The notes under the pieces: generated by a model | What the model saw: the letters and a program-made list of their open reading frames with translations, nothing else | Database searches by the model: none | What the model was told of the DNA's origin: nothing | Assembly (NCBI GenBank): GCA_037176725.1 | Contig: JAZBRS010000057.1 | Span: 89,797,501-89,861,500, forward strand | DNA from: Posidonia oceanica | Taxonomy: Eukaryota > Streptophyta > Magnoliopsida > Alismatales > Posidoniaceae | DNA: 64,000 nucleotides | Direction of reading: 5' to 3' | Made by a program: the position numbers and the translations under genes | Shown: positions 3,057 to 60,745 of the stretch, piece by piece | How the letters are laid out: each line of letters starts with the position of its first letter | Position numbering within the stretch: the stretch's first letter is position 1

Positions 3057-5400
3057 AGTTGGCAACCCTAACTGCTCGGCGATAGGTCCGTTAACCTGTC
3101 ATCCTCGGGTTGATATCCCTAACTATTCGGCGATAGGTCCGTTAACCTATCACTCTGCATATTCTGCTGCACACATTTGCCACTCTCTGCACATATCATC
3201 TCATTTATCACTCTACACATTCCTCTGCACATTCACGCCATCCTACACATATTTATCACTCTGCATGCTCATTTTGCACATATCTGTCATCATGCATATC
3301 ACCTTCTGCACATACATGCCATTTCTTGCATCCTATAAAGCACAAAAACGCCAAAAAAATCAAGAAAATCAAAAAACACAAAAATATTTTCTCGCATTGC
3401 TGTTGGTTTTCCCTTTTATGTTTTCTTAAACCTAAAAAACCATAAAAAATACAAAACCGATGCAAAAACCTAAAAACATGCTTGTCCCTTCCCTTCTAAA
3501 AAATACAAAACCCATAAACATTTGTATAATCAGAAACCTAGCTATGGACAAGCAAGCAGCGCTTGGAGGATGTCAAGCAGTGACAATCTCAGGCAGAACT
3601 CACTCGAACAGCGCCATCTCTTGCATGTGGCTACAAAGTGAGATTGAGAGCAGAATAGAGCATCTCGTTGAGTTTTAGAACACTACAAGCGAAATCCACC
3701 TTATCAAGAGAGTCCACCGAACATGGAGAGGACCGAAGCAGAGCGGAGCATAGCCAGAGGCTGTAAGCACACATCGCAGAGGCTGAGGGTGTCCGCTGAT
3801 CAGCCGAACTCTTAATGCCTCATCAGGGACCGCTACCCCAAGAGGGCGAGGACATGCATATCCCAAAAGAATAGAGATCATGTGAGCAAAAGAATATGAT
3901 AACTTGATATGCATGCTGAGCGCAAAAGAAAAATGAAGAAAGAAGTTGAAGAAAGAAGGCGCTCATGAGAGGAGTGATTCGGATGAGCGTCAAAGCCACC
4001 TCAGTTATCAACATCAAGCGCCACACTGGCAACTGCACAATACATCATATCTGGAGGACCTGGCCCCACCCTCCGAGCGCAAAGCATGCTCCAACCCCTG
4101 TGCAGACAACACTTATTTCCAAGAAGGCTAGATGCAGATCCAATCACTCATGAGGGGAAAAGAAACATCATCCTGTGAGCGTCAAAAGCGGTAGTCGGTC
4201 CCCGAGGAATTAAGACGGAGGCCGTGAAGCTGCATCCAACGCTTCTGCTACCTACCTGCAGCCAAAGGCTATTCTCTGCGAAGCCAAAGCCTCATCCTGA
4301 GCCAAGAGTGAGAAAGAGAGCCACCGACCACAACTCGGCATGGCGTTGCTCGAGGATCGAGTCTCCTGAGTCAGGAAGTACAGAAGCACCCTTTTAGCGC
4401 AGTTGCTTTTGAGTCCAAAGCCACCAAAAAATGCATTCTGTAATAACTTACCTTCTCTTCACCCTGTTTTCGAAAATCGGAGCCAAGGATGAGCACTCTT
4501 TGCCTGACCTCGCTCAGAGGCTCTGCGTTTTTCAAAGTTTTGCCGCCCACCGCGTTGGGTAGGTCCTTGATGACCGGCATGTCCCTCGTTTGTCACCTCG
4601 TGACGCTACGAAGCATGCCCGCGCTGAGACCATTGCACACCCACCACGGGGGGTTTCCTATTTTCTATGTATCCGTCCGCATTCCTCATTCTTTGCATCC
4701 GGGCTGGCACCCCTAACTGCTCGGCGATGGGTTCGTCAACCTATCATCCATCCGCCCATTCATCCACCCTTGCATTCTGGTGCCAGGGGCGCTTCGGTTG
4801 TCCCCTGGTATCATCCTGATACCAGGGACATCTTTTTTGGCTATCCTGTGGTATCGTCCCCCTCGCTCAATCGGGTTGGCAGCCCTAAACTGCTTGGCGA
4901 TGGGTCCGTCAACCTATCACATTGCATTCTTTGTTCCATTGCATTCCCCACGCCGTCAAGTCAAGCCACCAAACATCCCCAGCCAATCACTCCCGGGCTG
5001 GCACCCCTAACTGCTCGGCGATAGGTTCGTCAACCTATCATCCATTCATCTATCCATCCTCGCATTTCGGTGCCAAGAGCGCTTCGGCTGTCCCCTGGTA
5101 TCATCCTGATACTAGGGGCATCTTTTTTGCTGCCCCTTGGTATCCCACTTCCATCTGCATTGGGCTAACATCCCCAACTGTCGCGGGAGCGTCTCTGGAC
5201 CTCTGCCGCACCTTTTGGTTCGGTATCCCGCCCCCTTTCCACCCTCATTCGGGCTGATAGCCCTAAACTATCCGGTGATGAGTCCGTTAACTCCTCATTC
5301 AGGCTGATAGCCCTAACTATCCGGTGGTGAGTCCGTCAACTCTTTAGAGGGCCGATACCCCCTAACTATCCGGCGATAAGTCCGTTAACTTATCACCCCT
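3057..5400 (+). repeat. Dispersed about 45-bp hairpin repeat, GATAGGT-CCGTT-ACCTATC type
   Basis: About eight copies of a unit containing CCCTAACT, TCGGCGATAGGTCCGTTAA and CCTATCA. They lie near 3057-3108, 3109-3155, 4701-4751, 4875-4920, 4998-5043, 5252-5300, 5301-5345 and 5345-5395. Each contains an inverted repeat; arm bases vary between copies (GATAGGT, GATGGGT, GATGAGT, GATAAGT) and the opposite arm mostly varies with them. Confidence 0.75.
4803..4827 (+). repeat. Perfect 11-bp inverted repeat around TCC
   Basis: Arms CCCTGGTATCA and TGATACCAGGG with a 3-base spacer. A second copy at 5093-5117 has one mismatch in the right arm. Element B carries the same locus in reverse at about 47983-48000 with shorter arms, and in both elements it is followed by a GCGCTTCGG block (read in element sense). 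Confidence 0.8.
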
Positions 5401-5452
5401 TTCGTCATAGTTTAATAGCATTGTGTTGCATGGCATTAGCACCACATCATCG

Positions 5453-5905
5453 CACGGACATGGCGTGCTTAGGATTCAACCCTTGACTAGCGTATTGCCT
5501 AAGGTATCATCCTCGGCACCCACAAGACTTTCGCAGCTTGCCGGCTTTGGATGATACTCGCAGTAGTGCGCGGCCTTGGGATCGTTTTTTCAGTTTCGCA
5601 TGTCCGGCGTTCCATTGTTTATACACTGCATAACATTAGCATTTCATTGCATGACATCATATAGCTTCCTTGTGTCCTCTATAGAGTCAGTCCTAGTACT
5701 GCATTCCATCATTGCACGGACATGGCGTGCTTAGGATTCTAACCCCTGGCTCACGTATTGCCTAAGGTATCATCCTCGGCACCCGCAAGACTTTCGTAGC
5801 TTGCCGGCTTTGAATGATACTCGCAGTAGTATGCAGCCTTGGGATCGTTTTCCCGGTTCCGTATGCCCGGCGCTCCACTGTTTATACCCTGCATTCCACT
5901 GCATA
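5453..5905 (+). repeat. Direct repeat, about 190 bp, offset 262 bp
   Basis: A segment beginning CACGGACATGGCGTGCTTAG near 5453 recurs near 5715. Both continue through CGTATTGCCTAAGGTATCATC and the CGCAGTAGT block, ending near GTTTATAC. No coding frame is shared by the two copies. Confidence 0.8.
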
Positions 5906-6510
5906 ACATTGCATAACATTGCACCCTTATTGCGTTGCTACTCCTCTGTGGTCCTTACACTAACTTCCACATTCCGCTTTCCCGGGCATTGCGTGCCCAC
6001 CATCGCATGCACATCCACAGCATCTTTACTTTTCAGCCTTTATTTTCAGCACTTACTTTCAGCCTTTATTTTCAGCACTTTCCTTGTAGTACTTTACTTT
6101 CAGCATCTTTACATTCAGTCTTTTACTTTCAGCACTCGCATCGCCTATGCCTACAGCAGAAGCTTGGCAAACGGCACCCCCGCGCTAGAGCTGCACACCG
6201 CTCAGTGCACCCCCTCGTCCGGCTCTTCCGAAGTATTGTCCGACGATCCTGCATTGCATTCTCTGCCTTTTCCACGTGCATGCATCACCCGCTTTCCCCC
6301 CAGAGGAGTCTAGCGCAATGGGCATTAGCGTAGGCATCACATTTGCATTAGCGTAAGCATTACATCTACATTCATCCGCATTCGGCGACGAGTCATAAAT
6401 TTCGGTGCATCCATCGAATAAGTGACTCACGTCTACAACAACATTTGGATCTCTGGTCAAATGGGGTGTCTTGTCGACCCTGAGCAGCGGCCTCGGTCCC
6501 CTTGACCTTG

Positions 6511-6526
6511 CTCAGGGAGGGGCATC
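6511..6526 (+). promoter_or_regulatory. Polypurine tract of element A
   Basis: CTCAGGGAGGGGCATC directly precedes the LTR start TGTTGACACC. Near-identical tracts abut LTR B (reverse complement at 45803-45818) and LTR C (58450-58465), so it is very probably the plus-strand primer site. Confidence 0.85.
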
Positions 6527-6589
6527 TGTTGACACCCCATTTTGACAGGCTGAATTAATGGATCTCTCGACCGGCTAGGAAAAACCTAA

Positions 6590-9864: not shown

Positions 9865-9932
9865 GTCCTCTTGAACTTCGGCAGCATCTTTTGCATATCA
9901 TTCGTGTTGCATGGCTTCTATACGCTCTATTT

Positions 9933-10415
9933 CGCTTTGTTTCTTGCACCGTTTTGCATGCCACTTTGTTTCTTGCACCGTTTTGCTTGCCCGACTTTGT
10001 TTCTTGCACCGTTTCGCGTGTCGCTTTGTTTATCGCATCGTTTTGCGTGTCCGACTTTGTTTCTTGCACCATTTTGCGTGCCGCTTTGCTTCTTGCACCG
10101 TTTTGCATGCTCGACTTTGTTTCTTGCACCGTTTTGCGTGCCACTTTGTTTCTTGCACCGTTTTGCGTGCCCGACTTTGTTTCTCGCATCATTTTGCATG
10201 CTGTTTTGTTTCTTACACTGTTTTGCGTGCCTGACTTTATTTCTCACATCGTTTTGCGTGCCGCTTTGTTTCTTACACCGTTTTGCATGCCAGCTTTGTT
10301 TTTCACATCGTTTTGCGTGCCGCTTTGTTTCTTGCACCATTTCGCATGCTGCTTTGTTTCTCGCACTGTTTTACGTGCCGCTTCGTTTCTTGCACCGTTT
10401 TACGTGTCTTACGTT
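9933..10415 (+). repeat. 30-33-bp tandem array in LTR A, about 16 units
   Basis: Units read roughly TTTGTTTCTTGCACC followed by GTTTTGCGTGCC with an optional CGA. The core GCACCGTTTTGCGTGC has inverted ends (GCAC/GTGC). All six frames stay open through much of the array, giving spurious cysteine-rich ORFs. The solo LTR keeps about seven units at 53070-53245. Confidence 0.85.
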
Positions 10416-10770: not shown

Positions 10771-11159
10771 CTCTTGGCCCGCAATGACCATATTGCCCTT
10801 GTCCTAGGCACGAGTCACATCATTTGCATTCATTTGCATCTCATTTCTTTTGCATTGCCTTGCATTGCATCTTTTGCTTGGTTTTGTGTGATTATTCGCG
10901 CATTTCTCCAGTTTTCCTTGTCTCTCGATCTAATAGACTTGGTGGCGACTCCGATTTGTCTTATCTTCTTCTTTTCTTCCCCTTTTTCCCTTTTTTAAAT
11001 GTTTTCGAGTTAAGTCTTCCTTCTCGGACACAACCGCTAATAGTGAGCCTGATTCTGATCGGTGCACGCGAGCTTTGGCAATGTACATGGACGATCTGAA
11101 CACCGAGATTACTACACCAACTACTAATTACTATTTCAATGATGTGTGTCTCATTCATT

Positions 11160-11861: not shown

Positions 11862-12699
11862 TTTTTGTTATACAATCAAACGTTATATCTATCAAATTTC
11901 CTTTGTTTTACTATTGATAGGCACCGACATCGTTGCTATTGATTGAGATTGGCTATTATTATTGTATTCTGAGTTGATTGAAAGTTTAAGCATAAGATAT
12001 CTAAGTATCTTTCAAAATTAATTCATTCATTTATTTTACTTTGAGCATAGTGTATATATATTCACTAATCAAGTTATTTTTTCTTTTGTAGGTGTGATTA
12101 ATAAGCATGAGACAAACCAAGGGTCAAGGAATTTAACAATATCATGTGCAAGAACTTTGATTTTTTGTCGTTGTATTTTTTAGCACAACTTAGAATATTT
12201 TGTTGTTTGTTTGTGTTTGAACTTATGTTATTATTTTTTATTTAAACATAACTTGAACATTTGTTATTTATTTGTGTTTGAACTTTTGGTCCATTTATGT
12301 CGATGAAGAATTGAAATTATGATTAGTTCTTGTTTGAAGAAACTTTGTAATTATAATTTATGATTTATGGTTAACACTTATTGAATTATTATTGTCGATA
12401 TTTGATTACCATGTTGTTTACATTTACTTTCTGTAAAAACAGATTATATATTTATTGAATAGTATTCACTAAATAATTAAATTATTATTTTACAATTATA
12501 AATTAATTATTTATAGATTTATAATATTTATATTTCAAATATTTCGAATAAATATTTATTAATATTTAATACAGATACTCCGACGACGAATGTCAAAATT
12601 AACTTGCGTACGAATTTTTGAATTGGAATTCGGACATCGAGAGAATCACTTCGTTACACCCCCATGTACATGTAGTATTCCTGCACTAGCTCAAACCCC
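11862..12699 (+). other. AT-rich intergenic DNA and probable PORR gene promoter
   Basis: Strongly AT-rich to about 12560, where a GC-richer stretch begins. No gene or repeat was recognised. TATTTATA-like runs at 12520-12560 could serve as TATA elements for the gene at 12700. An in-frame ATG at 12664 is closed by a TAG at 12673. Confidence 0.4.
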
Positions 12700-14175
12700 A
12701 TGTCGTCGTTGTCGTCTATCTCTACCTCAAGGTGGCGAGGGGTGTCGAGCCTGAAGGTAGCCTGGCGCCGCGACCCCGCCCTCGACGCCGCCATCACCGC
12801 CGACAAGAAGTACCGCCTCTGCTCCCGCATTGTCCGTGAGGTCCTCGGCGAGCCCCGCCGCGCCATCGCCGTCCGGTACCTCGAGAACCGCCGCGAGAGG
12901 CTCGGCCTCTCCCTCAGGGTCAGGACCTTCCTCTCCCGCTACCCGACGCTCTTCGAGGTCTACCAGGACCGCATTGTCAAACCCAACGGCAGCAGCAGCA
13001 ACAGCGCTCAGGAGGTCCCTTTCCTCAGGCCCTCCATCTGTTTGACGGAATTCCTCAGCGAGGAGAGGAGGGTGAGGGAGGAGAACGAAGGGGTTGTCGT
13101 TGGTAAGATTTGTAAGCTTCTCATGATGTCGAGGGATCGGGCCGTTAGTGCCGAGAAGCTCAACAATGTCAAGAGGGATTTCGGCTTCCCTGATGACTTC
13201 TTGACCAGTGTGCTGCCAAGGTATGTACTTTTTCTAGCAGTCACATGTTGATGACTTTCCGAATCGTATTTGGAAGTTAACTTTTGCAGCTGGACTTTCT
13301 TTCGTTGTTATAAAATTCACTGAAATGACACTATTATGTATGTTCCATGGTAAGTGGCTATTCTGATGCCAAATTATATTTCTATCTACTATAGCATGGG
13401 ATTATTAGATCAGGCTGGTTTTTCAGACTGCGTTATGCAGTAGTTATGTCAAATGCCTGAATTTATGATTTGGGTATTAGAATTCTTGCTTTTTTTTTCA
13501 AACAGGTACCCTGAGTTTTTCAGGTTGGTTGGTGGTGGCTCAGGGACATCGTTTGTGGAGCTTGTGTCGTGGAATGACAAGTTTGCCAAGTCAGTTATTG
13601 AGACAAGAGCGGAGGAGGAGGCAGAGCTAACTGGTATTAGGATGAGGCCCAATTTCGTGGTTCGGCTTCCGGCTGGGTTTTTCTTGAGGAGGGAGATGCG
13701 GGAGTGGGTGAGGGACTGGTTGGAGATGCCTTACATTTCACCTTATGCTGATGCCTCAACATTGGAAAGGGCTTCACCACAGATGGAGAAGAGGATGGTG
13801 GGGGTTCTTCATGAGGTTTTGTCGCTCACCGTGCTAAGGAGAACACCCGTCCCTACTGTTGGCAAGTTCAAGGAAGAGTATCTGTTGTCAAATGAGTTTG
13901 GGAGTGCATTCACAAGGCATCCAGGGATATTCTATGTGTCATTGAAGGGTGGGATCAAGACAGCAGTGCTGAGAGAGGCCTACCGGAATGGGGTGCTTGT
14001 TGACAGGGACCCACTGCTAGAGATAAAGGACAAGTTCATGGAGTTAGTGGAGGAGGGGCATCAACAGTGGTTGGAACAGATGAGGCTGAAAAGAGAGGCT
14101 ATGAAGAAAGAAACAGAGATGACAATAGTGAGAGACACCGAATCATCTGACCAGGAGTATAGTGAATCAACATGA
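12700..14175 (+). CDS. PORR-domain organellar RNA-binding protein, two exons
   Basis: Exon 1 is 12700-13220 and exon 2 is 13506-14175, joined at CCAAG/GTATGT...AACAG/GTACC to give 396 residues. The family (PORR, formerly DUF860; maize WTF1 is the founder) binds organellar group II intron RNA and aids splicing. Seen: an acid-free, Ser/Arg-rich N-terminus of about 25 residues (likely organellar presequence), then family landmarks in order: RTFLSRYPTLFEVY, LMMSRDRAVSAEKL, DFGFPDDFL, YPEFFRLV, ALVRRLPAGF-like VVRLPAGFF, MPYISPYAD, FGSAFTRHPGIFYVSLKGG and REAYRNGVLVDRDPLL. A Lys/Glu-rich tail closes it. The start is the first ATG after an in-frame stop at 12673. Exon 1 is much more GC-rich than exon 2. 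Mitochondrial versus plastid targeting cannot be decided. No stop or frameshift was seen. Confidence 0.9.
13221..13505 (+). other. Intron of the PORR gene
   Basis: GT-AG intron of 285 bases, with donor GTATGT and acceptor after a T-rich tract (TTTTTTTTCAAACAG). It splits the Arg codon before YPEFF, so the splice restores the conserved PRYPEFFRL sequence. Confidence 0.9.
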
Positions 14176-17850: not shown

Positions 17851-18023
17851 TTTGGATAAATATTCCATTCCTCGTTGAGTCCGGCCTACCTATATATTTC
17901 AATAGTTCTGTGCCACTCTCAAGAAAGCAATGATACGATTTGCGTCAAAAGTTTTTCTTCAGAAATCACAAGGCTTTGATCAACACAAGCAACTTGAAGA
18001 GCCCATGGAAGAAATAGAAGGTA

Positions 18024-19146
18024 GTTAATTATTTGATGGTATCTTGTATTATCATTGATTTTCTTTTCAATATTTTATACTTCAAAACACATCACTTTGG
18101 TACTTTAAATATTAATCGTCAATTACTTTAATACTGTTATTAGTGGGAGTATGTTTTATAATAAAATTTGAACGAAAATACCTTTGAGGTTGTATTCTTT
18201 ATTCTTCTCCATTTTTTCCTCTTTTTTTTTTCATTTCTTCACTTTGCTATTTTGAACTTTTGTAGTGAATCACTTTGGTACGTCCATGAATGGAAGTGGG
18301 TTTTACAATAATTCATGAATGAAAATACTCTTTACGTTATATCTTTTCTTTTTCTTTATTTCTTCTTCTTACATTTTTTTTGTTAGATTAAAGTGATTTT
18401 TAGCAGGATTGATGATTGATATTGTAATGTATCTAATATATGTATTTTTCAATTGAATCAATGAAATTTTTTTATCATAAAGTAATGAATGAATATTGTG
18501 TATTGTTTTACTTTATTTTCTTGTAAATGAAGTTACTACTGTCACTAACATTCCAAAAATCAAGTTTTGAATTTAAATTCCTGTCTTAACACATAAAATT
18601 CTGGACAGGGATTTAGATTTAAAGTTTGATTTTTGGAATATTAGTGATAGTAGAAGTTATTATCTTCATTTACAAGAAAATAAAGTAAAATAATACATAA
18701 AATTCATTCATCGATTCAATTGAAATATATATATATTGGATATATTACAACACTAATCATCAATCCTGTTAAAAATCACTTCAATCTAAAAAAAAAGTGA
18801 TAAGAAAAGAAAAAGAAATGAAGAAGAAGTGATATAAAGTTACAGTTATTTTTATCCACAAATTATTATAAAACTCACTACCACTTACGAAAGTACTAAA
18901 GTAATTGATTGTAAAATTGATTGTAAAAGTTTAATGTACAATAATGATGAAATGAAGAAATAGAAAAGAGTAAGGAATATAACATTAGGAGTATTTTTGT
19001 TCAAAAGTTTTTATAAAACATACTTCCACTAACGGAAGTATTAAAGTGATTGATAGTAAAAGTTTAAGATATCAAAGTGATGTGTTTTGAAGTACAGTAT
19101 TAAATTGAACATCAGTGATAGTACAAGATACTATCAAGTAATTAAC
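18024..19146. mobile_element. Foldback element: about 560-bp inverted repeat arms
   Basis: The left arm (18024-about 18585) and right arm (about 18595-19146) are reverse complements over nearly their whole length, with scattered mismatches and small gaps. Matching landmarks are GTTAATTA at the outer ends, CTTCAAAACACATCACTTTG and AAGTATGTTTTAT. The axis lies in the AATCAAGTTTTGAATTT / AAAGTTTGATTTTTGG stretch near 18590. No ORF and no clear target duplication. The transcript would fold into a very long hairpin. Confidence 0.8.
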
Positions 19147-20570
19147 TTATTTTTTTTTAAAAGTTCTGCATGTATTGGGATTCGAATATGTAATCTCTCA
19201 GTTGGAGTATTAGTCATATACCAAATGGATTATACTTTGTTTAATTGAAAAGTAATGTAGTTGTGAGTGCATGTAGCTAACATGATTGTATATACTCTAT
19301 TTTCTCTTCTTTTTTTTATTTTTTAAGTAAACTTCGACTCCAACAAATGTAAAATTAAAGAATGTTGTTGTTTATGAACTGAACTACAAGATGTACGTTA
19401 TGATGTTCAAAATTTGAAAAATACAAGCAAAATGGATATAGTCACATACAAGCCCAAGTCACTATTCCAGAAATTGCATCTTCGAAAGAGTCATTCTAAT
19501 TATTTTATGAGTTGTTAGAAATTTCCAGACGATGTTGAAGTATTGAAGTTTGATGCTATGTCGTGACATTTACAATATTACCCATTGAGGTCGTGGGTCT
19601 ATTTTATTTTTTTTCGTTTTTTTAAAAAGTATCCTTGTGTATTGAACTATCATACTATAAAGTTCTTGTAAATATCACGATCCTTCAACTAATAGCCTTA
19701 GGTTTTAGTAAAATTCAATGGTTGAACTTAAATATTTTAATCCTTTTTTGAAGATAGCTAAGTTGATAGGAACTCTTTGTGATACTGTATAAGAGCTCAA
19801 ATCCTTGATATTACGCATAATAATATTGGTGTTGTGGAATTCAAACTCTTTTGACCTTTTGTAAAAGTACAAGGGGAGCTTACCACTTGTCCAAGAGACT
19901 GTAGATAAATACTTAATCAATGTTTTAAAAAAATGGAAAACAACCTTAGTATGAATCGAGTTTCTAAACATTTTTTGAACTAATGAGGTTTAAATAGGTG
20001 TTTAATGAAAATAATGGTTGACACTAAAAAAAATAACTGAATAACAACATGCTTGCAGTCAAACAACATTCATCAAATTATCTCAATATATAAAATTATC
20101 ATTCAAACACAAGTAACTTAATTCAAAACACATAACTTGAACATATATAGTTATCATTCAACCATGAGTAATTTAATTCAAAAACATAAATTAATTAACT
20201 AAATAAGTAACATATATAAGTAAGCAACTAAATACCTAGGAATCAAATTTTGTCAATGACAACAAATCAACATCATACTACCAAAAAGTCTTCTTTAGAA
20301 AATAATGATTGAAAAATGACCCATTTTTACTCACAAAACGTCTCCTTAAACAAACCAAACTTATTTGAATAAGCGTTTAAAGTTTATCCATTTAAAGACC
20401 ATGTAAGTGCAAAACAAAATGGTACCATGTAAAAAACGTTTAAATGTCGTTTAAATCATCATTATTTCGATTGTTTTGGAACAATGGTTCTAATGACTAA
20501 AAATAAAAACTTAAAAGTTTAGCAATTAAAGTATGTTGTAGACAATAAAATAGGTTAAAAGATTGTAGAG
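19147..20570. other. AT-rich intergenic DNA
   Basis: No gene, array or element end was recognised. Short frames such as 19705-19971 on the minus strand have low-complexity AT-driven content. Confidence 0.4.
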
Positions 20571-20573
20571 TTA

Positions 20574-35163: not shown

Positions 35164-35165
35164 CT

Positions 35166-42736: not shown

Positions 42737-42848
42737 CTTGCTATCGCCACAAAACAAGACACAGAAAGAAAGATCAGTGCAATTGACAAATATTGTATAG
42801 TCCTAAGGAGCCACTAGACCGGACACTACTAAGCTGGTGCACTTAGTG

Positions 42849-45802
42849 TGTAGTAATCCTGAAAATTGGCATGTCCATGCATGATGCCAAAGCTCGCGTG
42901 CACCGACCGATTATAGGCCACTGATAGCGGTGGACCTGAGGAGGGACATTCGACTCGAAAAACACCAGAAAAGCAGAGACGAACGCAAAAGGAAAACAAA
43001 AGAAAAGACAAGGAGTCGCCACCTAATTTATTAAAATGGAAAAACTAGGAAAACCGTGAAAGAAACATGCAAAGAAGACTTATGCATTTTAAAATCATGC
43101 AAATCCGATCCAAGTGTGTGACACAGAGTCAATGCTGTCTAGAGAAAGAGTAAGGACTCCTGTTACGCGCGGAGAAGGTGTTTGGCACCCCCGACACGTC
43201 CGAGGAATCAGTCTTTCTAAACTGATCCGCTATTGTGTGGCAAATGTTGGTGTAAAATGTTGGTTTATGTTCGCCCTAAGGCGGTATGCAATATGCAATT
43301 ATAAACCATGCAAAGCTTAGCAAACCTTGTTTAAAAGTGATTAAATAAAGTTTAAAATGCTACAAGGGGGTGGAAATAGGTCGGGAAAACACAAACAAGG
43401 CGCGAAATCTGAAAACCATTGCTAAACTATGTGCTGGGGTACTAAACATGCCCTAGGAGCAATCAAACACAAAAAATGAGGTTCGAGTCGAAAACGGCAC
43501 AAGGAAACAGAGTGCAGCAAACTTAAAGTGTTGGACGCTGGCATAACCAGCGTCCAACATAAGACGCTGGGAAACCCAGCGTCCTACACAGAAGATAGGA
43601 AACCTGTAGAACATGCATGCACAACTGATAAAACATGATATCAATACCAAGTAAAAGCCATAAACAGAGTAGAGCAAGCCAAACAATCAGAGCAACAACA
43701 ATCGAAACATGAAAACTAAGAGCGGGCGTGAAATCTGGAAGCCACAGTCCCAGAGTGTTGAACGCTGGGCACAACCGCGTCTAACATAGAACGCGATGAT
43801 CTCAGCGTCCAACATAGAGAGGCAGATGCACAAACTGGAAGGAAAACTGGGCTCATGGATCATTAAAAAAAGTTTACAACTTAATGAAAGTAGATGAGAA
43901 CTCAGCATACACTCAGAATCAAATCAACAACTCATAGGAAAAGGGATTCAGAAGCATATATTGGCAGCAAAGCTTAGAGGTGTAAAACACTACAACTACC
44001 GGCGTCTTATGTAAGATGCTGGCAACAACAGCGTATAACACTTCAGAGACAGATTCATAAGAAAACTAACATGCAACTTAAATGAAGCCATATGTAAACC
44101 TACAAACAGCTGAAAGAGGACCTAAATACTAACATGCATGCATGGATCAAACAAAAATTCAAGCAAAATCGCTTTGAGCAGTTATTAAAGCAAAGCAAGC
44201 ACACAGGAGCGTAAGACGCTAAGGAAGCCAGCGTATAATGTTAAACGCTGGCGCACCCAGCGTCCAACACCCAAGCAGGCCATCTTAAAGACAGAAAAAG
44301 GAAAACCACACTGGAAAATAACATGATTTAAAACATGGCATCTAGAAGCATGAAGGAAAGCATACGTGACATTAAACCATATAGCATGTTCATTAAACCT
44401 TATTAGCAAGAGAAACAGCAAAGGAAAACAGCAAGGTCGTTGGACGCTGCCACAAGGCACGTCTAACGTTAGACGCACCAGGTCATGCGTCTAACAAGTC
44501 GGGGTACTTTCCAGCAAGAAACAACATCCAAATCGATCAAAAATGGGAAACTAAATAGCTGGGAAGCAAGAGTGAGCAAAGACAAGTCTAAAAATGTGCT
44601 TGGTGTCAAAAATGGGTGAGTGGATTGCTCCACCCACCTCCTCCCTCTCGTCGCTGGTTTCCATGGCTACTTCGGCCATCTGTGAGGCCGACGAGCCATG
44701 GTGATGGACTGTGAAGCTCCGCGCGAGTGAGGGAAGACTTTCCAGACCTTAAGCAAGCCACAGGGTACGCGAGGGAAGCTGCCACACACTCACAGGCCAG
44801 CGGCCTCGTGCGGACGGCAAATCCATCACCAGACTCCGGTGAGCAAGGTGGTGGAGCTACGTGCATGGTGAAGTGCATGTGGAAAAGAGTCTACTATGCT
44901 ACCATAAGTGTGTCTAAGCTAAGGGTTGAAGAAGATTACCTGTTTGCAGCCCGGAATGGTGTCCCGCAATCGGCCGGCGAAGGTGGACGGCGACGGACAG
45001 CGAGCTCCAGAGGGTGGCCGGAGCATGGGAGAAGGTTCGGGAGGACTGCTCACAAGTTGGGAAGCACTCTGGGAATCACTCGAGGCTCGGGAGGATTCTG
45101 AATTCTGAGCAGAATGGGTGTGGTGATGGAAAAAGAAATGATGGGTTCTCTTTTGTTCACCGGTTTTGCAGAGATGGCAGGCGAGGTGCAGAGGGCGGTG
45201 GAGAGAGCTGGAGCCACGGCTGAGGGTGTGGGCATGTCAGGAGATGGTAGAGGAGTAAGTGGAGTCAGGTCTGTAGGTGTCATGTGGGCGAGGCAGTGGA
45301 GAAGGCTGTGAGGAGCAAGTTGCCGGCGAAGGTGGGAGGTGGCAGGCCGGAGAGGATGGGTAGTTACTGCGGCTTGTTTTTAGCGTTTGGAAGGAGTGGG
45401 TAATAAGTGAGGAGTGGACGTGAGGTCGTGGGGTGGCAAGAGAGGGCGGAGGGCGGCCAAAGGGCGCTGGCCATCCTGACACATTGGACGCTCACTGGAG
45501 CCACGTCCAATGTAAGACGCCAGCACAGACAGCGTCCAACGTTGGACGCTGGCACAGGCAGCGTCTAACGTCCCAGAGGTGTTTCAAGGCTGTTTTTGGG
45601 AATTTTGGCTTAGGTTAAGGTTTGGTTTAAGACTAAGGTAAGGATTGGGACTGGTTTAGGTGGGTTTAGGAGAGATCAAGGTCTAGGTCAAGGTTTAGGT
45701 TAGATTTGGGTAGGGATTGGAAATGGTTTGTCAGGCCGCGATCTCGAGCAAACCTCCAAGGAAATCCACCAACTTAAAGCCTGTCAAAATGGGGTGTCTA
45801 CA
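42849..45802 (-). repeat. LTR B (3' LTR of element B), 2954 bp
   Basis: On plus it begins TGTAGTAATCC, the same eleven bases as the solo LTR, and ends GGGGTGTCTACA. It contains the GGTGGCGACTC and GGTGCCTAACACC-type shared blocks near its left end, six clusters of GGACGC palindromes, a GC-rich segment (44630-45350) and a C-poor tract (45590-45720). Confidence 0.85.
43529..45572. repeat. Paired GGACGC palindrome modules in LTR B
   Basis: Clusters at 43529-43583, 43757-43820, 43998-44042, 44208-44275, 44436-44495 and 45482-45572. The clearest is 43529-43559: arms TGTTGGACGCTGG and CCAGCGTCCAACA around CATAA, a perfect 13-bp inverted repeat, followed by GACGCTGGG-AAA-CCCAGCGTC. Confidence 0.9.
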
Positions 45803-45818
45803 GATGCCCCTCCCTGAG
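45803..45818 (-). promoter_or_regulatory. Polypurine tract of element B
   Basis: The minus strand ends CTCAGGGAGGGGCATC and abuts the LTR start TGTAGACACC, identical to the tract of element A. Confidence 0.85.
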
Positions 45819-46444
45819 TGAGGTCAAGCGTAGCGAGATCGTGGCTCAGGGTTGACAGGACACCCCGCCTGACGTCAGCGGGAGCAAAATGTTATTGGCA
45901 CGAGTCACTTATTCGGCAGATGCACCGAAAGTCATGACTCATTGCTGCAATGTGAAATGCAAATGTAGGTGCAAATGCTGATGCAATGTGATGCTAATGT
46001 AACTACCTAGCATGTGATGTTGGTGCAAAGTGATGTGATGTATGCTAATGTGACGCGATGTAAAGGGATGCTGAAAAGGCTGCGATGCAATGCGATTACT
46101 TGGCAGCTAGTCCAAATTTGCGCAAAAGGTGGCACCGGACAAAACTAACATGCTTGCCGTTCAGGCAGTTGGGGCTGCTAGTCCGGAGGAGGCAAAAGAT
46201 AGCTTGTCCTCGCCCAAGGAAGCAAGTGAGCGGCCAGGGCCGTGCAAAATAAAGGGGCAAAATCCCAAAAATGTGCGAGAGAAGAGGGGGGCACCTCCTC
46301 CTGCTGAGCTAGAAAGCAAGCAAGAAAAGGGACATCCTCTCCTACTGAGAAGGCAAGCGGGACCTCGCCTGCCAAGAGCGAAGTCGCGCAAAAGATGATG
46401 GTTGGTAAGTTTTGGACCTATCGACCGGAAAGGGGGAGAAGAGC

Positions 46445-47905
46445 GATAAGTTCTGGACTTATCGACCGGAAAGGACGAGTTTCGGATCATTAGCCAAGGA
46501 AAGTGATAAGATTTCGGACTTATCGGCCAGAAGTGATGGTTTCGAAACATCAACTGGGGGATGCAAATGCAGATGATAAGATCACAGACTTATCGGTCAG
46601 AAGTGATGGTTTCGGAACATCAACCAGGGGATGCAAATGCAGATGATAAGATCACGGACTTATCAGCCAGAAGTGATGGTTTCGGATCATCAATCGAGGG
46701 AAGCAATTGCAGATGATAAGATAACAGACTTATCGGCTAGAAGTGATGGTTACGAGCATCAGTCGAGGGTTGCAAATGCAGATGATAAGATAACGGATTT
46801 ATCAGCCGGAAGTGTTGGTTTTGGATCATCAGCCAGGGGTGCAAATGCAGATGATAAGATCACGGACTTATCAGCTGGAAGTAATGGTTTCGTAGCATCA
46901 GCCGAGGGTTGCAAATGCAGATGATAAGATAACAGACTTATCGGCCAGAAGTGATGGTTTCGGATCATCAGTCGGGGGGTTGCAAATGCAGATGATAAGA
47001 TCACTGACTTATCAGCCAGAAGTGATGGTTTCGAATCATCAGCCGGAGGGATGCAAATGCAGATGATAAGATCACGGACTTATCAGCCAGAAGTGATGGT
47101 TTCGGATCATCAACTGAGGGTTGCAAATGCAGATGATAAGATAACGGGCTTATCAGCCAGAAGTGATGGTTTCGGAGCATCAGCTGAGGGATGCAAATGC
47201 AGATGATAAGATCACGGACTTATCAGCCAGAAGTGATGGTTTCAGATCATCAGCCCGGGGATTGCAAATGCAAATGATAAGATCACGGACTTATCGACCA
47301 GAAGTGATGGTTTCGGATCATCAGTCGAGGGTTGCAAATGAAGATGATAAGATAACGGACTTATCGACCAGAAGTGATGGTTTCGGATCATCAGTCGAGG
47401 GTTGCAAATGAAGATGATAAGATAACGGACTTATCGACCAGAAGTGATGGTTTCGGAGCATCAGCCGAAGGTTGCAAATGCAGATGATAAGATCACAGAG
47501 TTATCGGCCAGAAGTGATGGTTTCGGAGCATCAACCGAAGGTTGTAAATGTAGATGATAAGATCATGGACTTATCGGCCAGAAGTGATGGTTTCGGAGCA
47601 TCAGCCGAAGGTTGCAAATGCAGATGATAAGATCACAGAGTTATCGGCCAGAAGTGATGGTTTCGGAGCATCAACCGAAGGTTGTAAGTGTAGATGATAA
47701 GATCAATGACTTATCGACCAGAAGTGATGGTTTTGGAGCATCAGCCGAAGGTTGCAAATGCAGATGATAAGATAACGGACTTATCGGCCAGAAGTGATGG
47801 TTTCGGAGCATCAGCCGAAGGTTGCAAATGCAGATGATAAGATAACAGACTTATCGGCCAGAAGTAATGGTTTCAGAGCATCAGCTGAAGGTTGCAAATG
47901 CAGAT
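46445..47905 (-). repeat. 70-bp tandem array in 3' UTR of element B, about 20 units
   Basis: Each unit carries two hairpin-like parts (plus strand): GATAAGATCACGGACTTATC and GTGATGGTTTCGGATCATC, joined by AGCCAGAA and GGGTTGCAAATGCA. Units differ by scattered substitutions, mostly transitions. Spurious ORFs run through the array. Confidence 0.9.
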
Positions 47906-48479
47906 GAACCCGTGACAGCCAGGTATGTCAACGAGGGAAAGAAGGGGAAGTGATACCACAAGACAGCCAAAAAAGATGCCCATGGTATCAGGATGATACA
48001 GGGGACAACCGAAGCGCCCTTGGCATCAAAAAACGGAGAATGCGAACAAAACTATCGTGTTTGCCGACTGAGTAGTTAGGGGTACTAGCCTGGTGATGAG
48101 GATCCGAGCGAGGGTGCTCAGCGGCCTTGCTTGATTTGATGGCGCTGGTTTGCAGAGATTCTGGCATCTAGATAGAATGTGAGGGCTTTCTTGCAGCTTC
48201 CTCGTGCTGAAAGTCCTGGTCGCTGCTCCTGACTCTGTGAACTACTCAATGCGCCTCCTGCAGCATTCTGGCAGCAAACCTTGCTAGAGGCCCCAAGGCT
48301 TGAATGGCAAGAACACATATGCATTAAGCCAATTTCAAACAGAAGTAGATGGCACAAAATATCCTTGCATTGATTGAGTCCTGATTACATGCCTATGACA
48401 GACCATAGAAGATACAACCTGACTCAAAGTGGAACATGCAAGCAATGGTACAAACACCCTAACTGGTTCAGGCTCTCTT

Positions 48480-49659
48480 TGACCTCCTGGAATCAGGGAA
48501 AAGAGGTGTGCCAGGTGGGATCTCGCGATGGGCCAGAGTCCCTACACCTCAGTCACATACTCATAGTGCACCTCGAGCCTTTTGCAGCCGCGATGTCTGT
48601 CGACTGCACTCCATGGCGCATCAGGTTAACAAGTTCTGTTGTAGTAGCAATTGAATTGAGAGGATAGGGCTGAAGAAGACTAGGTGCCGTGCTGTCGACA
48701 AAGGCGCCCTACTGAAAGTCGAACTACCGCATGACCTGGATAGGGTGATACTCCACACCCCCGGTGAACCCTGGCAGCACCACTAGTCGCATGTCGCGGG
48801 TGCTGAAGAAAATAGTGAATGATTCAACAGCCGATGGGATGATACGCCAGGTTACTGCATCATTCGTTAGCTTTGACAGCTTCTCGTATTCTTCCTGGAC
48901 GCTCTTGATAGTTTTGGCATGGCCGCTATTGCAGTATGTCTCAAAGGCTTGTCTTTGGGGGTGCAGGATATCCATCTCTAGATGTCCGGCCAACCAAATC
49001 TATATGAGGGCCCCGTAGCCGTAGAAGTGGCGGCAGCGGTGCGAAACGCGGTCCAGCCCGTGGTAAGTCTCTACTAGGACAATTGGTGCCAAGTCGATCT
49101 ACTGAGTCACCACAGCGAGTGCAATATCAGTAACCTCGATCGCGACCGTCATCCGACCGTGGCTGAAAACTAGCTCACCTAGAAAGCAGGTAACAAAACC
49201 TCGGAGCCACAACTCATCTCTTAGCTCGGCACGCTTCTCGGTAGCTTCATCAAAGTATCCTAGGTGGAGCATGGGCACGGGCCCGTTGGTGCAGACCAAT
49301 CTTTGCTGCCAGTTCACTGTGGAGAGTCCAGTCAGCTGGCTCAAAACTACAGCATAGCCGTCACGTCTCGTGAACACAACCGGTCCCATGATCTTGGAGA
49401 AGCTGCAGATCCGACGTACTTCTTCTAACGTGGGCGTCAGCTCTGTTCTTTCGAAGTGGAAAACATGGTGTGCCGGTTTCCAGAATCTTACAGTAGCGCA
49501 CAGGAGATGTCGGCTCACCTCTACATCAGCTACCCTCAAAAGCTTAGACGGTATGCCCCACGAGTGCAGCTTCTCATGGTCATCTTCGGTGAGTTTGCCA
49601 ATCCACTCTCGAAGGGTCTTGGAGCAATGTGTCAGGGTCACCAAAGTGGGGAAATCCAT
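48480..49659 (-). pseudogene. ORF1 remnant of Tat/Ogre element (DUF7745-like)
   Basis: ATG at 49659: MDFPTLVTLTHCSKTLREWI, then VRFWKPAHHVFHFERTELTP, SKIMGPVVF, LRGFVTCFLGELVF, TAG at 49099-49101, and onward in the same frame with DLAPIVLVETYHGLDRVSHR and LAGHLEMDILHPQRQAFETY. It stops at 48724, and further broken segments (ELVNLMRHGVQSTDIAAAKG) run to about 48480. The pattern resembles the extra ORF found upstream of gag in Ogre-type elements, whose function is unknown. Family assignment is from memory of the pattern, not a search. Confidence 0.65.
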
Positions 49660-50257
49660 TGCACAAGAGAGAGAATGCAGGCAACTAGTGCAAAGCCTCG
49701 AAGTACTTGTAACCAAGGTTGTTCATCAGATCATATACAAGCACATTGTAACCATGCGACCGAACGGCTCGAATGTGTCGAAAACAGCAAAGGCTGAAGA
49801 AAAGAAAACAAAACTTGGAGTCGCCACCTAGTCTATTTGGAAAACCGGAAGATAAGGAAAATCGGAAAAACATGTAAAATAAATAAAATACAAAGGATAT
49901 GACACAAGGTCATTACTGGCCAGAGATCGGGTAAGGACTCCTATTACGCATGGGGAAGGTGTTAGGCACCCCCATGCGCCCGAGAGAGTTGGTTTTTGTG
50001 GACTATTCCGCTCGTTTGTGGCTAATGTCAGCAATGATGCCATTTGCTATACGCCCAAAGACGATATGCCATGCCAAATGAAATATGCTATATGTCTTTT
50101 GAAAACATGCTAAATATCTTAGAAATATGCCGAGAATGAAAGTTAAATGCCTCAAAACACTGTAGATATGCAAATCATGTTGGATGATTAAAATCAAAGC
50201 AAACGGACCCAAAACCAATGTTGTAAAACTGCAAAATGTAATTCAGTTTACTGAAAG

Positions 50258-52406: not shown

Positions 52407-54009
52407 TGTAGTAATCCGAATCAGAATCAGGCTTACTATTGGCGGCGATGTCCGAGGAGGAGGGCTCAACTCGAAAACACTTAAAACAGAGGAGAAAAGA
52501 TAAGAAAAGAAGAAGATAAGACAATTCAGAGTCGCCACCGTGTCTATTATCGGGAGACAAGGAAAACCGGGGGAAATGCATGAGTTAACACGCAAAACCA
52601 AGCAAGAAATGCAAAGCAAAGCAATGCAAAGGAAAACAAATGCAAATACATGCAAATGAGATGACTCATGCCTAGGATAAGGGCGATATGGTCATTGCGG
52701 GCCAAAAGACTGGGCAAGGACTCCTGTTACGCGTGGGGAAGGTGTTAGGCACCCCCGACACGCCCGAGAATCGGTCTTTCTAGGCTTACGCTCGCATACG
52801 CAGGGAAATGCAAATTGGAATGCCTAAATGCCAATGAATGCCAGAATGAATGCTCATAGGTGTGCTCTAAGTGGTAGGATGCAATGCAAGGAAAGTAAAC
52901 GTGCAGTCTAAGTGCTCAGCAGCGCTGTCTGTGTTCCAAACCGGGCGAAACATGGCTCGTGAGAACTCTAGGCAGTAAGCATCACTGCCCTATATGCAAA
53001 TGCAAGCGGAAAAGCAAAACAACGGTAAAACCATGCAGATGCAGGCGACATGCAAGAGAAAACGACGTAAAGCATGCGAAATAATGCAAGAAACGAGAGC
53101 GGCACGCAAAATGGTGCAAGAAAACAAGATCGGCACGCAAAACAGTGCCAGAAACAAAGCGGGCACGTGAAACGGTGCCAAAAGTGAAGTGGGCACGCAA
53201 AACGGTGCCAAAGACAAAGCGGGCACGCAAAACGGTGCCAAAAGCGGCGGAATAAAACCTCGGCAAAACCATGCAGATGCAAATGCAAAGAGAGAGGACA
53301 AGAGAAGCGAAAGGGGAGGCAAACAGTGTGTGTGTGAGAACAGACACTGTTTAAGGGCTACACAGAGTAGGTGTGAAGACCTACAATGGGGAAAATGAGC
53401 AAGTGGAGGGATTACCACTGCTTTGCGACTGTTTCCCACTAAACCGCCCCACGATGTGTCTCGCACGCTGCCCAAAGCTCGCGGTGCGATCGGATCGTGG
53501 AAAAGGGGGAGGAAAGTCATAATTAGTGGTGAATCCAGGGGAAACGCAACACAAAGTACTTGGGAATACACGAAAAAGGGGGGCAGAGTTGATAGATAAG
53601 AAGAGGAAGTCCTATTCTACATGTTCGAGGAAACAGAAAGCGAAAACGATGCATGCAATGCAAATGGTGTGCAAATGAATGCTGTGCAGGGGTTCAGGAA
53701 GACTTACTTGGGAAATTTGAAGCCTGATCTGAGATCTGCTTGGTCCATGCTGAAGAGCGCTCCGCTGGGGTCGTCTAGGTAGCTTGTTTGAGAAGATCCA
53801 ACGGTCGGATCGGAAGATATCCCAGCTTCAAGACAGAGGGGCCAAAACAGGGGAGAAGAATAGATCTAAGTGTATAGGAGGTCCTAGGAGTGTGCAAAAC
53901 AGGTCCTCCCTTGTGAATGGGAGCTAATGACACTTAAGTGTGTGCAAAGGATGCAAAATACTAGAATGCATGAGTGCAATGCATGCAGAATGCAAGAAAA
54001 AGGCTTAGG

Positions 54010-58194: not shown

Positions 58195-58345
58195 TTGGAT
58201 TTTTTATTGGTCTTGGGTTTAGGCTTGGTTTAGGACAAGGCTTTGGTTTAGGCTTGGTTTTGGACAAGGCTTGGTTTTGGCTTGATTTTGGACAAGGCTT
58301 GGGTTTAGGTTTGGTTTTGGACAAGGCTTGGGTTTAGGTTTAGTT
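58195..58345 (-). repeat. 24-27-bp minisatellite in U3 of LTR C
   Basis: On plus, GGACAAGGCTT(G)GGTTT and GGCTTGGTTTT alternate about six times. Open frames through it are repeat artefacts. Confidence 0.8.
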
Positions 58346-58449
58346 TGGGATTGGTTTTGGGATTGGTGAATAGGTGGGGGCCGCCACGACCGAGCACATT
58401 CCTGGGAGAAAAACAGTCGACGAAGGACTACAAAATCAGGGTGTCTACA

Positions 58450-58465
58450 AATGTCCCTCCCTGAG
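58450..58465 (-). promoter_or_regulatory. Polypurine tract of element C
   Basis: The minus strand CTCAGGGAGGGACATT abuts the LTR start TGTAGACACCC. It differs from A and B in two bases. Confidence 0.8.
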
Positions 58466-58796
58466 CGAGGTCGAGGGAACCAAGGCCGCTGCTCAGGGTT
58501 GACAAGACACCACGACTGTAGTCGGTGGGAAGCAGTGTTGTTGTTGGCATGAGTCACTTATCCGGTGGATGAATCGAAAATCATGATTCGTTGCCACAAT
58601 GCAAATGCTAAATGTAAATGCTAGGATGCAATGCTGATGCTAATCCTACAATGCCGATGGCATGCTGGTGCTCATAAGCGCTAAAGTCCGTTTAGGGTGC
58701 GCGAGCAATGCATGTGTATGTAACACTAATGCGGATAATGTGATGTTGCAGATCGCTGAGCTCTGTCGCTCTAAGCGACCAGAAAGGGGATGATGT

Positions 58797-60745
58797 GATA
58801 AGTGTTGGACTTATCGACTGAAATAGATAAGTTTCGGACTTATCGGTTGAAAAAGGTGAATAGATAAGTTTCGAACTTATCAGCTGGAAAAGAGGATATG
58901 ATAAGTTTTGGACTTATCGGTCGGAAAAGGATATGATAAGTTTCAGACTTATCAGCCGGAAAAGAGGATATGATAAGTTTCGGACTTATCAGCCGGAAAA
59001 GGGGATAGATAAGTTTCGGACTTATCGGCCGCAAAAGAGGATATGATAAGTTTCAGACTTATCAGCCGGAAAAGGGGATAGATAAGTTTCGGACTTATCA
59101 GCCGGAAAAGAGGATATGATAAGTTTCGGACTTATCAGCCGAAAAAGAGGATATGATAAGTTTCAGACTTATCAGCCGGAAAAGGGGATAGATAAGTTTC
59201 GGACTTATCGACCGGAAAAAAGGATATGATAAGTTTTGGACTTATCAGCTAGAAAAAGGGATAGATAAGTTTCGGACTTATCAGCCACAAAAGAGGATAT
59301 GATAAGTTTCGGACTTATCAGCCAGAAAAGGGGATAGATAAGCTTCGGACTTATCAACCGGAAAAGAGGATACGATAGGTTTCGGACTTATCAACCAGAA
59401 AAGGGGATAGATAAGTTTCGGATTTATCAGTCGGAAAAGAGGATAAGATAAGTTTCAGACTTATCAGCTGGAAAAGAGGATATGATAAGTTTCAGACTTA
59501 TCAGCCAGAAAAGAGGATATGATAAGTTTCGGACTTATCGGCCGGAAAAGAGGATATGATAAGTTTCGGACTTATCAGCCGGAAAAGGGGATAGATAAGT
59601 TTCGGACTGGCCAGTCGCAAAAGGAGATAGATAAGTTTCAAACTTATCAGCCGGAAAAGGGAATAGATAAGTTTCGAACTTATCAGCCGGAACAGAGGAA
59701 TAGATAAGTTTTGGACATATCAGCCGGAGTAGATAAGTTGTGGACTTATCAGCTGGAATAGATAAGTTTCAGACTTATCACCCGAAAAAGAGAATGGATA
59801 AGTTTCGGACATATCAGCCGGAAAAGATAAGTTTCGGACTTATCAACCGGAATAGATAAGTTTTGGACTTATCACCCGAAAAAGAGAATGGATAAGTTTT
59901 GGACTTATTAGCCGGAAAAGAGAATAGATAAGTTTCGGACTTATAAGCTGGAATAGATAAGTTTCGGACTTATCAGCTGGAAAAGGGAATAGATAAGTTT
60001 CGGACTTATCAGCCGGAAAAGATAATGGATAAGTTTCGGACTTATCAGCCGAAAAAGAGAATAGATAAGTTTCGAACTTATCAGCCGGAATAGATAAGTT
60101 TCAGAGTTATCACCCGAAAAAGAGAATGGATAAGTTTTGGACTTATTAGCTAGAAAAGAGAATAAATAAGTTTCGGACTTATCAGTCGAAATAGATAAGT
60201 TTCTGACTTATCAGCTAGAAAAGGGAATAGATAAGTTTCGGACTTATCAGTCGGAAAAGATAATGGATAAGTTTCGGACTTATCAGCCGGAATAGAGGAA
60301 TAGATAAGTTTCGGACTTATCAGCCGGAAAAGATAATGGATAAGTTTCAGACTTATCAGTCGGAAAAGAGAATAGATAAGTTTCGGGCTTATCAGCCGGA
60401 ATAGATAAGTTTCGGACTTATCACCTGAAAAAGAGAATGGATAAGTTTTGGACTTATCAGCCGGAAAAGAGAATAGATAAGTTTCGGACTTATCAGCCGG
60501 AATAGATAAGTTTCGGACTTATCAGTCGGAAAAGGGAATAGATAAGTTCGGACTTATTAGCCGGAAAAGATAATGGATAAGTTTCGGACTTATCAGCCAG
60601 AAAAGAGAATAGATAAGTTTCGGACTTATCAGCTGGAATAGATAAGTTTCAGACTTATCACCCGAAAAAGAGAATGGATAAGTTTCAGACTTATCAGCCA
60701 GAAAAGAGAATAGATAAGTTCTGGACTTATCAACCGGAAAAGGAT
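58797..60745 (-). repeat. About 31-bp hairpin tandem array in 3' UTR of element C, roughly 60 units
   Basis: The unit is GATAAGTTTCGGACTTATC plus AGCCGGAAAAGAG-type spacers of 6 to 18 bases. Arms GATAAGT and ACTTATC enclose TTCGG. Arms are mostly conserved; spacers vary in length and sequence. Element sense reads GATAAGTCCGAAACTTATC. Confidence 0.95.

What the first reader, a model, noticed from the sequence alone, without database searches (positions are those of the whole stretch)
3057..60745. A conserved hairpin, GATAAGTCCG-N-CTTATC, in the 3' UTR arrays of all three Tat/Ogre elements
In element sense A has forms like GATAAGTCCGTTAACTTATC, B has GATAAGTCCGTGATCTTATC and C has GATAAGTCCGAAACTTATC. 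The surrounding repeat units differ completely (about 45 bp dispersed, 70 bp tandem, 31 bp tandem), yet the stem and the CCG at the loop persist. In A several arms change together (GATAGGT with ACCTATC, GATAAGT with ACTTATC), which points to selection on pairing. Hypervariable 3' UTR tandem repeats are known in Ogre-like elements; a conserved hairpin core is the new part.
Basis: partly seen in the sequence, partly recalled or inferred. Interest (0 to 1): 0.78.

Follow-up and report, generated by a model that had tools for sequence, protein, structure and literature searches.

The report
Shared hairpin repeat in Ogre-type retrotransposons
Three plant jumping-gene remnants of the Ogre type carry the same small foldable motif, repeated 8 to 56 times just before their right end; the motif is real and shared, but the evidence that its folding is kept by selection is thin.

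Summary
The motif is real. All 73 window matches to GATAAGTCCG (up to 1 mismatch; 2.3 expected) lie in the 3' UTRs of three elements. I collected 86 hairpin units: 8 in A, 22 in B, 56 in C.
YGG plus pyrimidines precedes 60 of 86 stems, B's 70-bp unit holds two related hairpins, and one hairpin sequence is identical in B and C. This is one diverged repeat, not one hairpin in unrelated repeats.
Pairing evidence is limited. Two of seven stem pairs show double changes, all seven such cells in A. A has 5 G·U and 0 A·C cells; B plus C have 4 and 7. C's array folds as well antisense. Template switching could also match the arms.
A shows gag but no pol, B an ORF resembling the plant mobile domain, C an integrase. 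That all keep the array hints at a cis-acting role. Best guess, at 0.4: a multicopy RNA site for export or packaging. A conserved polypurine-tract hairpin turned up too. I reached no relatives outside the window.

The parts
3081..5394 (+). Element A: 8 hairpin (HP1) units at 3081, 3132, 4726, 4899, 5020, 5277, 5326, 5375 (20 bases each; stem 7, loop 6)
46404..47907 (-). Element B: 70-bp tandem array with 22 HP1 units and a second related hairpin (TGATG..CATCA) in the 70-bp units; last two units C-like
58797..60742 (-). Element C: array of 56 HP1 units, spacing 36/37/29 (twice 35) bp
1337..2632 (+). Element A gag ORF (PF03732), directly followed by the 3' UTR; no pol domain found in the ORFs scanned
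2633..6526 (+). Element A 3' UTR up to the 3' LTR (TG at 6527)
49099..49722 (-). Element B ORF with similarity to plant mobile domain (below Pfam cut-off) and DUF7745 (above it); PMD is an extra-ORF domain reported for many Ogre elements
63189..63509 (-). Element C integrase core (PF00665)
4799..4830 (+). Second shared hairpin HP2 (TGTCCCCTGGTATCA-TCC-TGATACCAGGGACA), copy 1 of element A
5089..5120 (+). HP2, copy 2 of element A
47977..48007 (-). HP2 of element B
60958..60992 (-). HP2 of element C (larger loop; not the minimum-energy fold of its stretch)
6463..6538 (+). Hairpin enclosing the polypurine tract and the first bases of the 3' LTR, element A
45791..45866 (-). Same hairpin, element B
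58438..58513 (-). Same hairpin, element C
10943..10952 (+). TGGCGACTCC, putative primer binding site at the LTR end (A); also 43012-43021, 49817-49826, and 52528-52537 with 1 mismatch, all three on the - strand

Best explanation
One ancestral short repeat, about YGGYY-GATAAGT-CCGNN-ACTTATC, sat in the 3' UTR of an Ogre-type ancestor and was amplified separately in three families. Shown: the core is shared and its arms can pair. Inferred: each unit is a small hairpin in the genomic RNA that binds a protein (host, or Gag/nucleocapsid), and the array acts in cis as a multicopy site that helps unspliced or full-length RNA to be exported or packaged. Inferred: amplification comes from abnormal strand transfer in reverse transcription, as proposed in print for Tat/Ogre 3' UTR repeats.
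For: The core is confined to the three 3' UTRs within this window. Families whose LTRs are diverged (A-C about 73-75% over the two long blocks; B against A or C only patches of roughly 61-78%) still share it. In A, 54 of 56 stem cells pair, with double changes at two pairs and 5 G·U but 0 A·C cells. In C, stem sites vary less than the upstream linker (14 of 770 against 51 of 440 non-CpG cells, p = 1e-12). The array is kept while coding content differs (A gag without pol found, B PMD-like ORF, C integrase), as expected of a cis-acting part. [quoted passage not shown] mouse IAP and musD elements meet it with structured RNA transport elements (PMC12786077, passages).
Against: B and C show no covariation (rows) and no sense-strand G·U preference. 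C's array folds at least as well on the antisense strand (mean z -3.2 against -2.7), as any palindrome would. In C the stem is not clearly better kept than the non-CpG loop (p = 0.08), and the tests treat tandem units as independent. In B some linker stretches are as invariant as the stems. Minimum-energy folds of one B unit (z -1.0) and of A's triple repeat (z -0.8) are hardly better than shuffles. Missing pol in A and B may be later deletion. There is no protein, transcript or assay evidence.
Confidence: 0.4

Rival explanations
1. By-product of replication: a palindrome makes reverse transcriptase or DNA polymerase pause and switch template. This both amplifies the unit and repairs one arm from the other, so arms change together without selection on RNA.
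For: Template switching in DNA replication is reported to create and maintain hairpins with multibase compensatory changes (PMC8794818, abstract and opening text); its extension to reverse transcription is my inference. [quoted passage not shown] Strand-symmetric folding in C and mostly perfect arms in B and C fit.
Against: G·U cells in A (5, with 0 A·C) are not what arm copying makes. In C the core is conserved well beyond its upstream linker, which mere amplification need not give.
Confidence: 0.3
2. DNA-level palindrome: GATAAG/CTTATC is a twofold binding site for a host transcription factor (GATA- or MYB-type; recalled, not tested), so the array is an enhancer or silencer and RNA folding is incidental.
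For: Strict primary-sequence conservation of the right arm (3 of 385 cells changed in C; 20 exact copies in B's array). Symmetry on both strands. Sireviruses carry repeated palindromic motifs thought to be regulatory, though in their LTRs and at env (PMC2829016, passages).
Against: A's arms change to GATAGGT/ACCTATC and GATGAGT/ACTCCTC, which would alter such a site yet keep 7 and 6 pairs. The array lies in the element's interior, not in the LTR.
Confidence: 0.17
3. Shared descent only: the repeat is an inherited stretch of 3' UTR that has had too little time to lose its palindrome; no function and no mechanism keeps it.
For: One hairpin sequence is identical in B and C (41 rows, 40 distinct). 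Other blocks, such as that of HP2 and the polypurine region, are alignable too.
Against: A's 3' UTR of 3.9 kb aligns with B's and C's only in a few blocks (7 and 6 blastn rows), so the core outlasted much of its surroundings. The B-C listing was cut at 13 rows and is mostly array.
Confidence: 0.13

Closest known systems
Hypervariable 3' UTR tandem repeats of Tat/Ogre elements (Macas et al. 2009, not held, known here through PMC7004042; Gmr9/GmOgre minisatellites, PMC3305785)
   Same: Position between coding region and 3' LTR; tandem arrays of variable period; also in elements lacking pol through large deletions (PMC7004042, passage).
   Different: Those reports stress variation. Term searches of the main texts of PMC7004042 and PMC3305785 found no hairpin, palindrome or secondary structure. 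Here a core is shared between families.
Retand POL-3'LTR arrays (Vicient 2025, PMC11963269, parts 1-3 of 5 read)
   Same: Repeat arrays of 8-100 bp units, often next to the 3' LTR; repeats described as family-specific.
   Different: No hairpin or secondary structure in the text (term search; 'palindrom' only in the reference list). Retand's antisense TRP28 ORF was not found here: 0 of 12 antisense ORFs of 75 aa or more in the three 3' UTRs.
Sirevirus repeated palindromic motifs and PPT inverted repeat (Bousios 2010, PMC2829016, sections 6-8 and passages)
   Same: Conserved palindromic microdomains in otherwise diverged plant retroelements, with a CGG-CCG signature; an inverted repeat at the PPT/3' LTR junction.
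   Different: Ty1/copia; those motifs sit in LTRs and at env. Their PPT repeat has its left arm bordering the PPT; here the outer arm lies further upstream and the tract is itself partly paired.
RNA transport elements of IAP and musD (RTE, MTE; PMC12786077, passages)
   Same: Proposed working analogy: structured cis RNA in an LTR retrotransposon that lets unspliced RNA leave the nucleus.
   Different: Those have known export factors or a complex fold; here many small hairpins and no binding data. No homology claimed.

Membership tests
Ogre lineage (Ty3/gypsy, Tat) | Extra ORF with plant mobile domain (57% of Ogre elements, PMC6317226) | tested here: inconclusive
   Element B ORF 49099-49722: PMD 2.4e-6 (27.4 bits, below Pfam's cut-off of 34.9) and DUF7745 2.9e-6 (27 bits, above its cut-off of 26). 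A distant relative of A's gag (P0007, 28% identity) carries DUF7745. Not shown for A or C.
Ogre lineage (Ty3/gypsy, Tat) | Tandem repeats in the 3' UTR | tested here: met
Ogre lineage (Ty3/gypsy, Tat) | Integrase/gag of LTR-retrotransposon type | tested here: met
   rve in C, gag in A; lineage not resolved by a tree
Ogre lineage (Ty3/gypsy, Tat) | Archaeal-type RNase H between RH and INT, and RT phylogeny | not testable with these tools
   C's pol upstream of the integrase lies outside the window; no pol found in A and B
Ogre lineage (Ty3/gypsy, Tat) | Primer binding site type | tested here: inconclusive
   TGGCGACTCC at the LTR ends (1 mismatch in C); its match to tRNA-Arg is recalled, not tested
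[quoted passage not shown]
   No antisense ORF of 130 aa or more in the three 3' UTRs; 12 of 12 antisense ORFs of 75 aa or more (6 A, 5 B, 1 C) scanned without a TRP28 match
CTE/RTE-like RNA export element | Position between coding region and 3' LTR | tested here: met
   that export elements of retroviruses often lie there is recalled
CTE/RTE-like RNA export element | RNA structure kept by selection | tested here: inconclusive
   Two covarying pairs, all in A; no sense bias in B and C
CTE/RTE-like RNA export element | Export of unspliced reporter RNA through an export factor | not testable with these tools
   needs an assay
Any Rfam family | Match at gathering score | tested here: not met
   0 matches in 64 kb

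The most novel reading that the evidence does not exclude
Ogre-type elements carry a lineage-wide, multicopy RNA hairpin element (HP1 array, HP2 and a polypurine-tract hairpin) in the 3' UTR that is read by a protein for export, packaging or plus-strand priming. The notorious hypervariability of these arrays would then be turnover of a conserved functional unit, and Ogre-derived plant satellites would descend from it.
Probability: 0.22. Interest if true: 0.72.

Novelty: new variant of a known kind. Interest (0 to 1): 0.42.

Why it matters
Ogre elements make up 45% of the Lathyrus sativus genome and their 3' UTR repeats seed satellite DNA (PMC7004042, passages), while origin and function of the related Retand arrays are described as unknown (PMC11963269). 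A shared core gives a concrete unit to test: is it an RNA site that selection keeps, or a palindrome that copying errors keep?

Tried and rejected
Pseudoknot or kissing pair between upstream CGG and loop CCG: no association across units (C 138 of 165 pairs against 138.8 by shuffle, 55 of 56 units; B 59 of 66 against 60.2; A 24 of 24, uninformative).

Sense-strand signature (G·U over A·C cells, 41 rows): holds in A only (5 to 0), not in B (1 to 2) or C (3 to 5); further cells with other mismatches are 2 in A, 12 in B and 5 in C.

General excess of structure in the 3' UTR: in 100-base windows the mean sense z is -0.6 for A's 3' UTR, 0.0 for B upstream and -0.9 for B downstream of the array (10 windows), -0.4 for C upstream and -0.5 for C downstream (5 windows); A's gag has -0.9 and B's LTR -0.9. 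So there is no broad excess outside the C array (-2.7) and, more mildly, the B array (-1.2).

Relatives: the hairpin pattern in viral contigs gave 76 contigs with a single match each, taken as chance. Two C integrase pieces and A's gag there gave one 15-residue match (L077, not pursued) and nothing. Plasmids gave nothing for the polypurine region. A gag protein search gave 7 hits without genomic context.

Rows dropped: unit 60558 (4-base loop) was left out (55 of 56 C units) and of alignment A2. A2 took 41 of 86 units: 8 of 8 A, 13 of 22 B, 20 of 56 C, one per distinct hairpin sequence within each element save that unit, which over-weights variants. One search used 19 of 22 B units. The second B hairpin was aligned from 19 of 21 candidate places: one with an indel and one diverged were left out. 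HP2 used 4 of 5 candidate copies, the fifth misaligning. Units were found by left arm and loop, which biases those towards conservation; the right arm is free of that bias. Alignments A1, A4 and A5 were set aside (A1 and A4 misaligned; A5 replaced by the longer A6). HP2 has no double changes and neither has the polypurine hairpin, so both rest on conservation alone.

Changed on re-checking: the upstream shared stretch was first written as CCGGY; counted, it is YGG plus pyrimidines in 60 of 86 units and CCGG in 30 of 86. Further ORFs of the 3' UTRs were scanned; one weak DUF3796 match below its cut-off in A (3256-3495, - strand) is taken as chance. The PMD row was lowered to inconclusive.
Full report
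What is there. The window looks like plant DNA (plant-only domains such as PORR) with three Ogre-type LTR retrotransposon remnants. Element A (+ strand) has gag at 1337-2632 (Pfam gag 1.1e-11), no pol domain among the ORFs scanned, a 3' UTR from 2633, and a polypurine tract with the LTR start at 6527. Element B (- strand) has an ORF at 49099-49722 with plant mobile domain (2.4e-6, below Pfam's cut-off) and DUF7745 (2.9e-6, above it) similarity, a 3' UTR with a 70-bp array at 46504-47907, and an LTR start at 45802. Element C (- strand) has an integrase, an array at 58797-60742 and an LTR start at 58449. LTR ends are marked by TGGCGACTCC, with 1 mismatch in C. Plant mobile domain ORFs were found in 57% of Ogre elements (PMC6317226, passage), which points B to Ogre; placement by RT was not possible. 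B's 5' and 3' LTR ends are only about 62% alike, so B may be a mosaic. A further gypsy-type element at 36-43 kb (gag, protease, RT, RNase H, integrase and SH3_Tf2-1 pieces; probably a chromovirus, recalled) has no such array.

Is the motif more than chance? Yes. GATAAGTCCG with up to 1 mismatch occurs 73 times against 2.30 expected (largest shuffle 6), all 73 in the three 3' UTRs. The hairpin pattern occurs 33 times against 0.00. I collected 86 units, 8 + 22 + 56. A covariance model from 41 of them, searched without filters, gives no match outside the three 3' UTRs at E <= 0.1; many antisense echoes appear because the unit is nearly palindromic. Perfect hairpins of 7 or more pairs with loops of 3-9 number 44 in C's 3' UTR (2.1 by 10 shuffles), 7 in B's (1.2) and 4 in A's (0.9), but a 24.9-kb control stretch also has an excess (36 against 18.4).

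One repeat, not three backgrounds. YGG plus one or two pyrimidines stands before the stem in 60 of 86 units (8 of 8 A, 19 of 22 B, 33 of 56 C). B's 70-bp unit contains a second hairpin, TGATG-N-TCCGAAAC-CATCA, which aligns with C's TGATAAGTCCGAAACTTATCA with changes and a lost base in both arms. B's last two units have C's form, and one hairpin sequence is identical in B (46445-46463) and C (60713-60731).

Is pairing under selection? Over 41 rows (40 distinct), 90.3% of cells pair against 88.1% in shuffles, with 7 double-change cells against 1.2 (0 of 500 shuffles as high); but only two of seven pairs carry them, and the number of such pairs is not unusual (95 of 500). All seven cells come from A: five rows with G-C at pair 5 and two with G-C at pair 4. 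In A alone 54 of 56 cells pair, 96.4% against 91.3% by shuffle (1 of 500 as high); double-change pairs (325 of 500) and further pair types (476 of 500) are not in excess. Among departures from Watson-Crick pairing, A has 5 G·U and 0 A·C cells, B 1 and 2, C 3 and 5. In C, non-CpG stem cells change less than upstream linker cells (14 of 770 against 51 of 440, p = 1.3e-12) but not clearly less than non-CpG loop cells (7 of 165, p = 0.08); the loop CpG changes in 22 of 110 cells. These counts treat units as independent, which tandem copies are not. Windows across C's array fold better than shuffles on both strands (mean z -2.7 sense, -3.2 antisense); B's array does so mildly (-1.2 and -0.8). So A hints at RNA pairing, while B and C show conserved sequence only.

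How it probably works. Best supported: an inherited palindromic unit amplified per family. The step to function is inference. Three remnants with different coding content keep the array, the polypurine hairpin and HP2, which is what cis-acting RNA parts would do. Ogre RNA is partly spliced in pea and Medicago (PMC6317226), so an export aid is plausible, and IAP and musD use structured RNA for this (PMC12786077). Against this stands the copying-error rival: template switching in DNA replication can create and maintain hairpins (PMC8794818, abstract and opening text), and strand transfer was already proposed for these repeats (PMC7004042, passage). I give 0.4 and 0.3.

Known or new. 3' UTR arrays of Tat/Ogre/Retand elements are well known and called hypervariable (PMC7004042, passages) or family-specific (PMC11963269, parts 1-3 of 5 read); soybean Gmr9/GmOgre has five interleaved minisatellites there (PMC3305785, passages). 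Term searches for hairpin, palindrome and secondary structure found nothing about these arrays in PMC7004042, PMC3305785 or PMC11963269. Library searches for Ogre with stem-loop, Retand with palindrome (65), plant Ty3 LTR elements with hairpin and polypurine tract (57), retrotransposon tandem repeats with hairpin and template switch (88), and constitutive transport element with plant LTR elements (93) showed nothing on the point, judged from titles and abstract starts. Only open-licence papers are held; Macas et al. 2009 is not. I therefore call it a new variant of a known kind.

Beside it. All three elements have a hairpin around the polypurine tract and LTR start (GGGGTGTC with GACACCCC outside, CCCTGAG with CTCAGGG inside): 59 of 63 cells pair, with no double change, and a slid version has one; the z-scores of the folds are -3.7 (A), -0.8 (B) and -2.6 (C). 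It recalls the inverted repeat at the Sirevirus PPT/3' LTR junction (PMC2829016, section 8) but is arranged differently.

Limits. The host genome search did not complete (eight tries), no related plant DNA could be reached, and the whole test rests on three elements in one window.

Noticed in passing
6463-6538 (+), 45791-45866 (-), 58438-58513 (-): Conserved hairpin enclosing the polypurine tract and the first bases of the 3' LTR in all three elements (59 of 63 cells paired); comparable to, but arranged differently from, the Sirevirus PPT inverted repeat.
   Followed up: partly
4799-4830, 5089-5120 (+); 47977-48007, 60958-60992 (-): A second shared 3' UTR hairpin, CCCTGGTATCA-TCC-TGATACCAGGG type, inside an alignable block of about 80-110 bases shared by A, B and C.
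   Followed up: partly
60886-60903 (-): A perfect 7-bp hairpin ACAAGTC-atcc-GACTTGT just upstream of C's array, possibly a far-diverged unit.
   Followed up: no
43022-45801 and 49827 onward (-): The two LTR ends bounding element B are only about 62% alike and the 3' LTR is again followed by TGGCGACTCC, so B looks like a mosaic or neighbouring remnants rather than one clean insertion.
   Followed up: partly
12676-14175 (+): Plant organelle RNA recognition (PORR) domain gene in two ORF pieces between the retrotransposons.
   Followed up: no
31418-32274 and 35165-36062 (+): An 898-base direct repeat, 89% identical, with 37-bp subrepeats; possibly LTRs of a copia element, as a copia-type gag piece lies at 34530-34976.
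   Followed up: no
18023-19147: A region of about 1.1 kb that matches its own reverse complement at about 73%, a large inverted repeat.
   Followed up: no
9935-10406 (+), 53101-53244 (-): Second tandem array inside the LTRs of A and C (29/30- and 60-bp units built on GCACCGTTTTGCGTGCC), by eye also partly palindromic.
   Followed up: no
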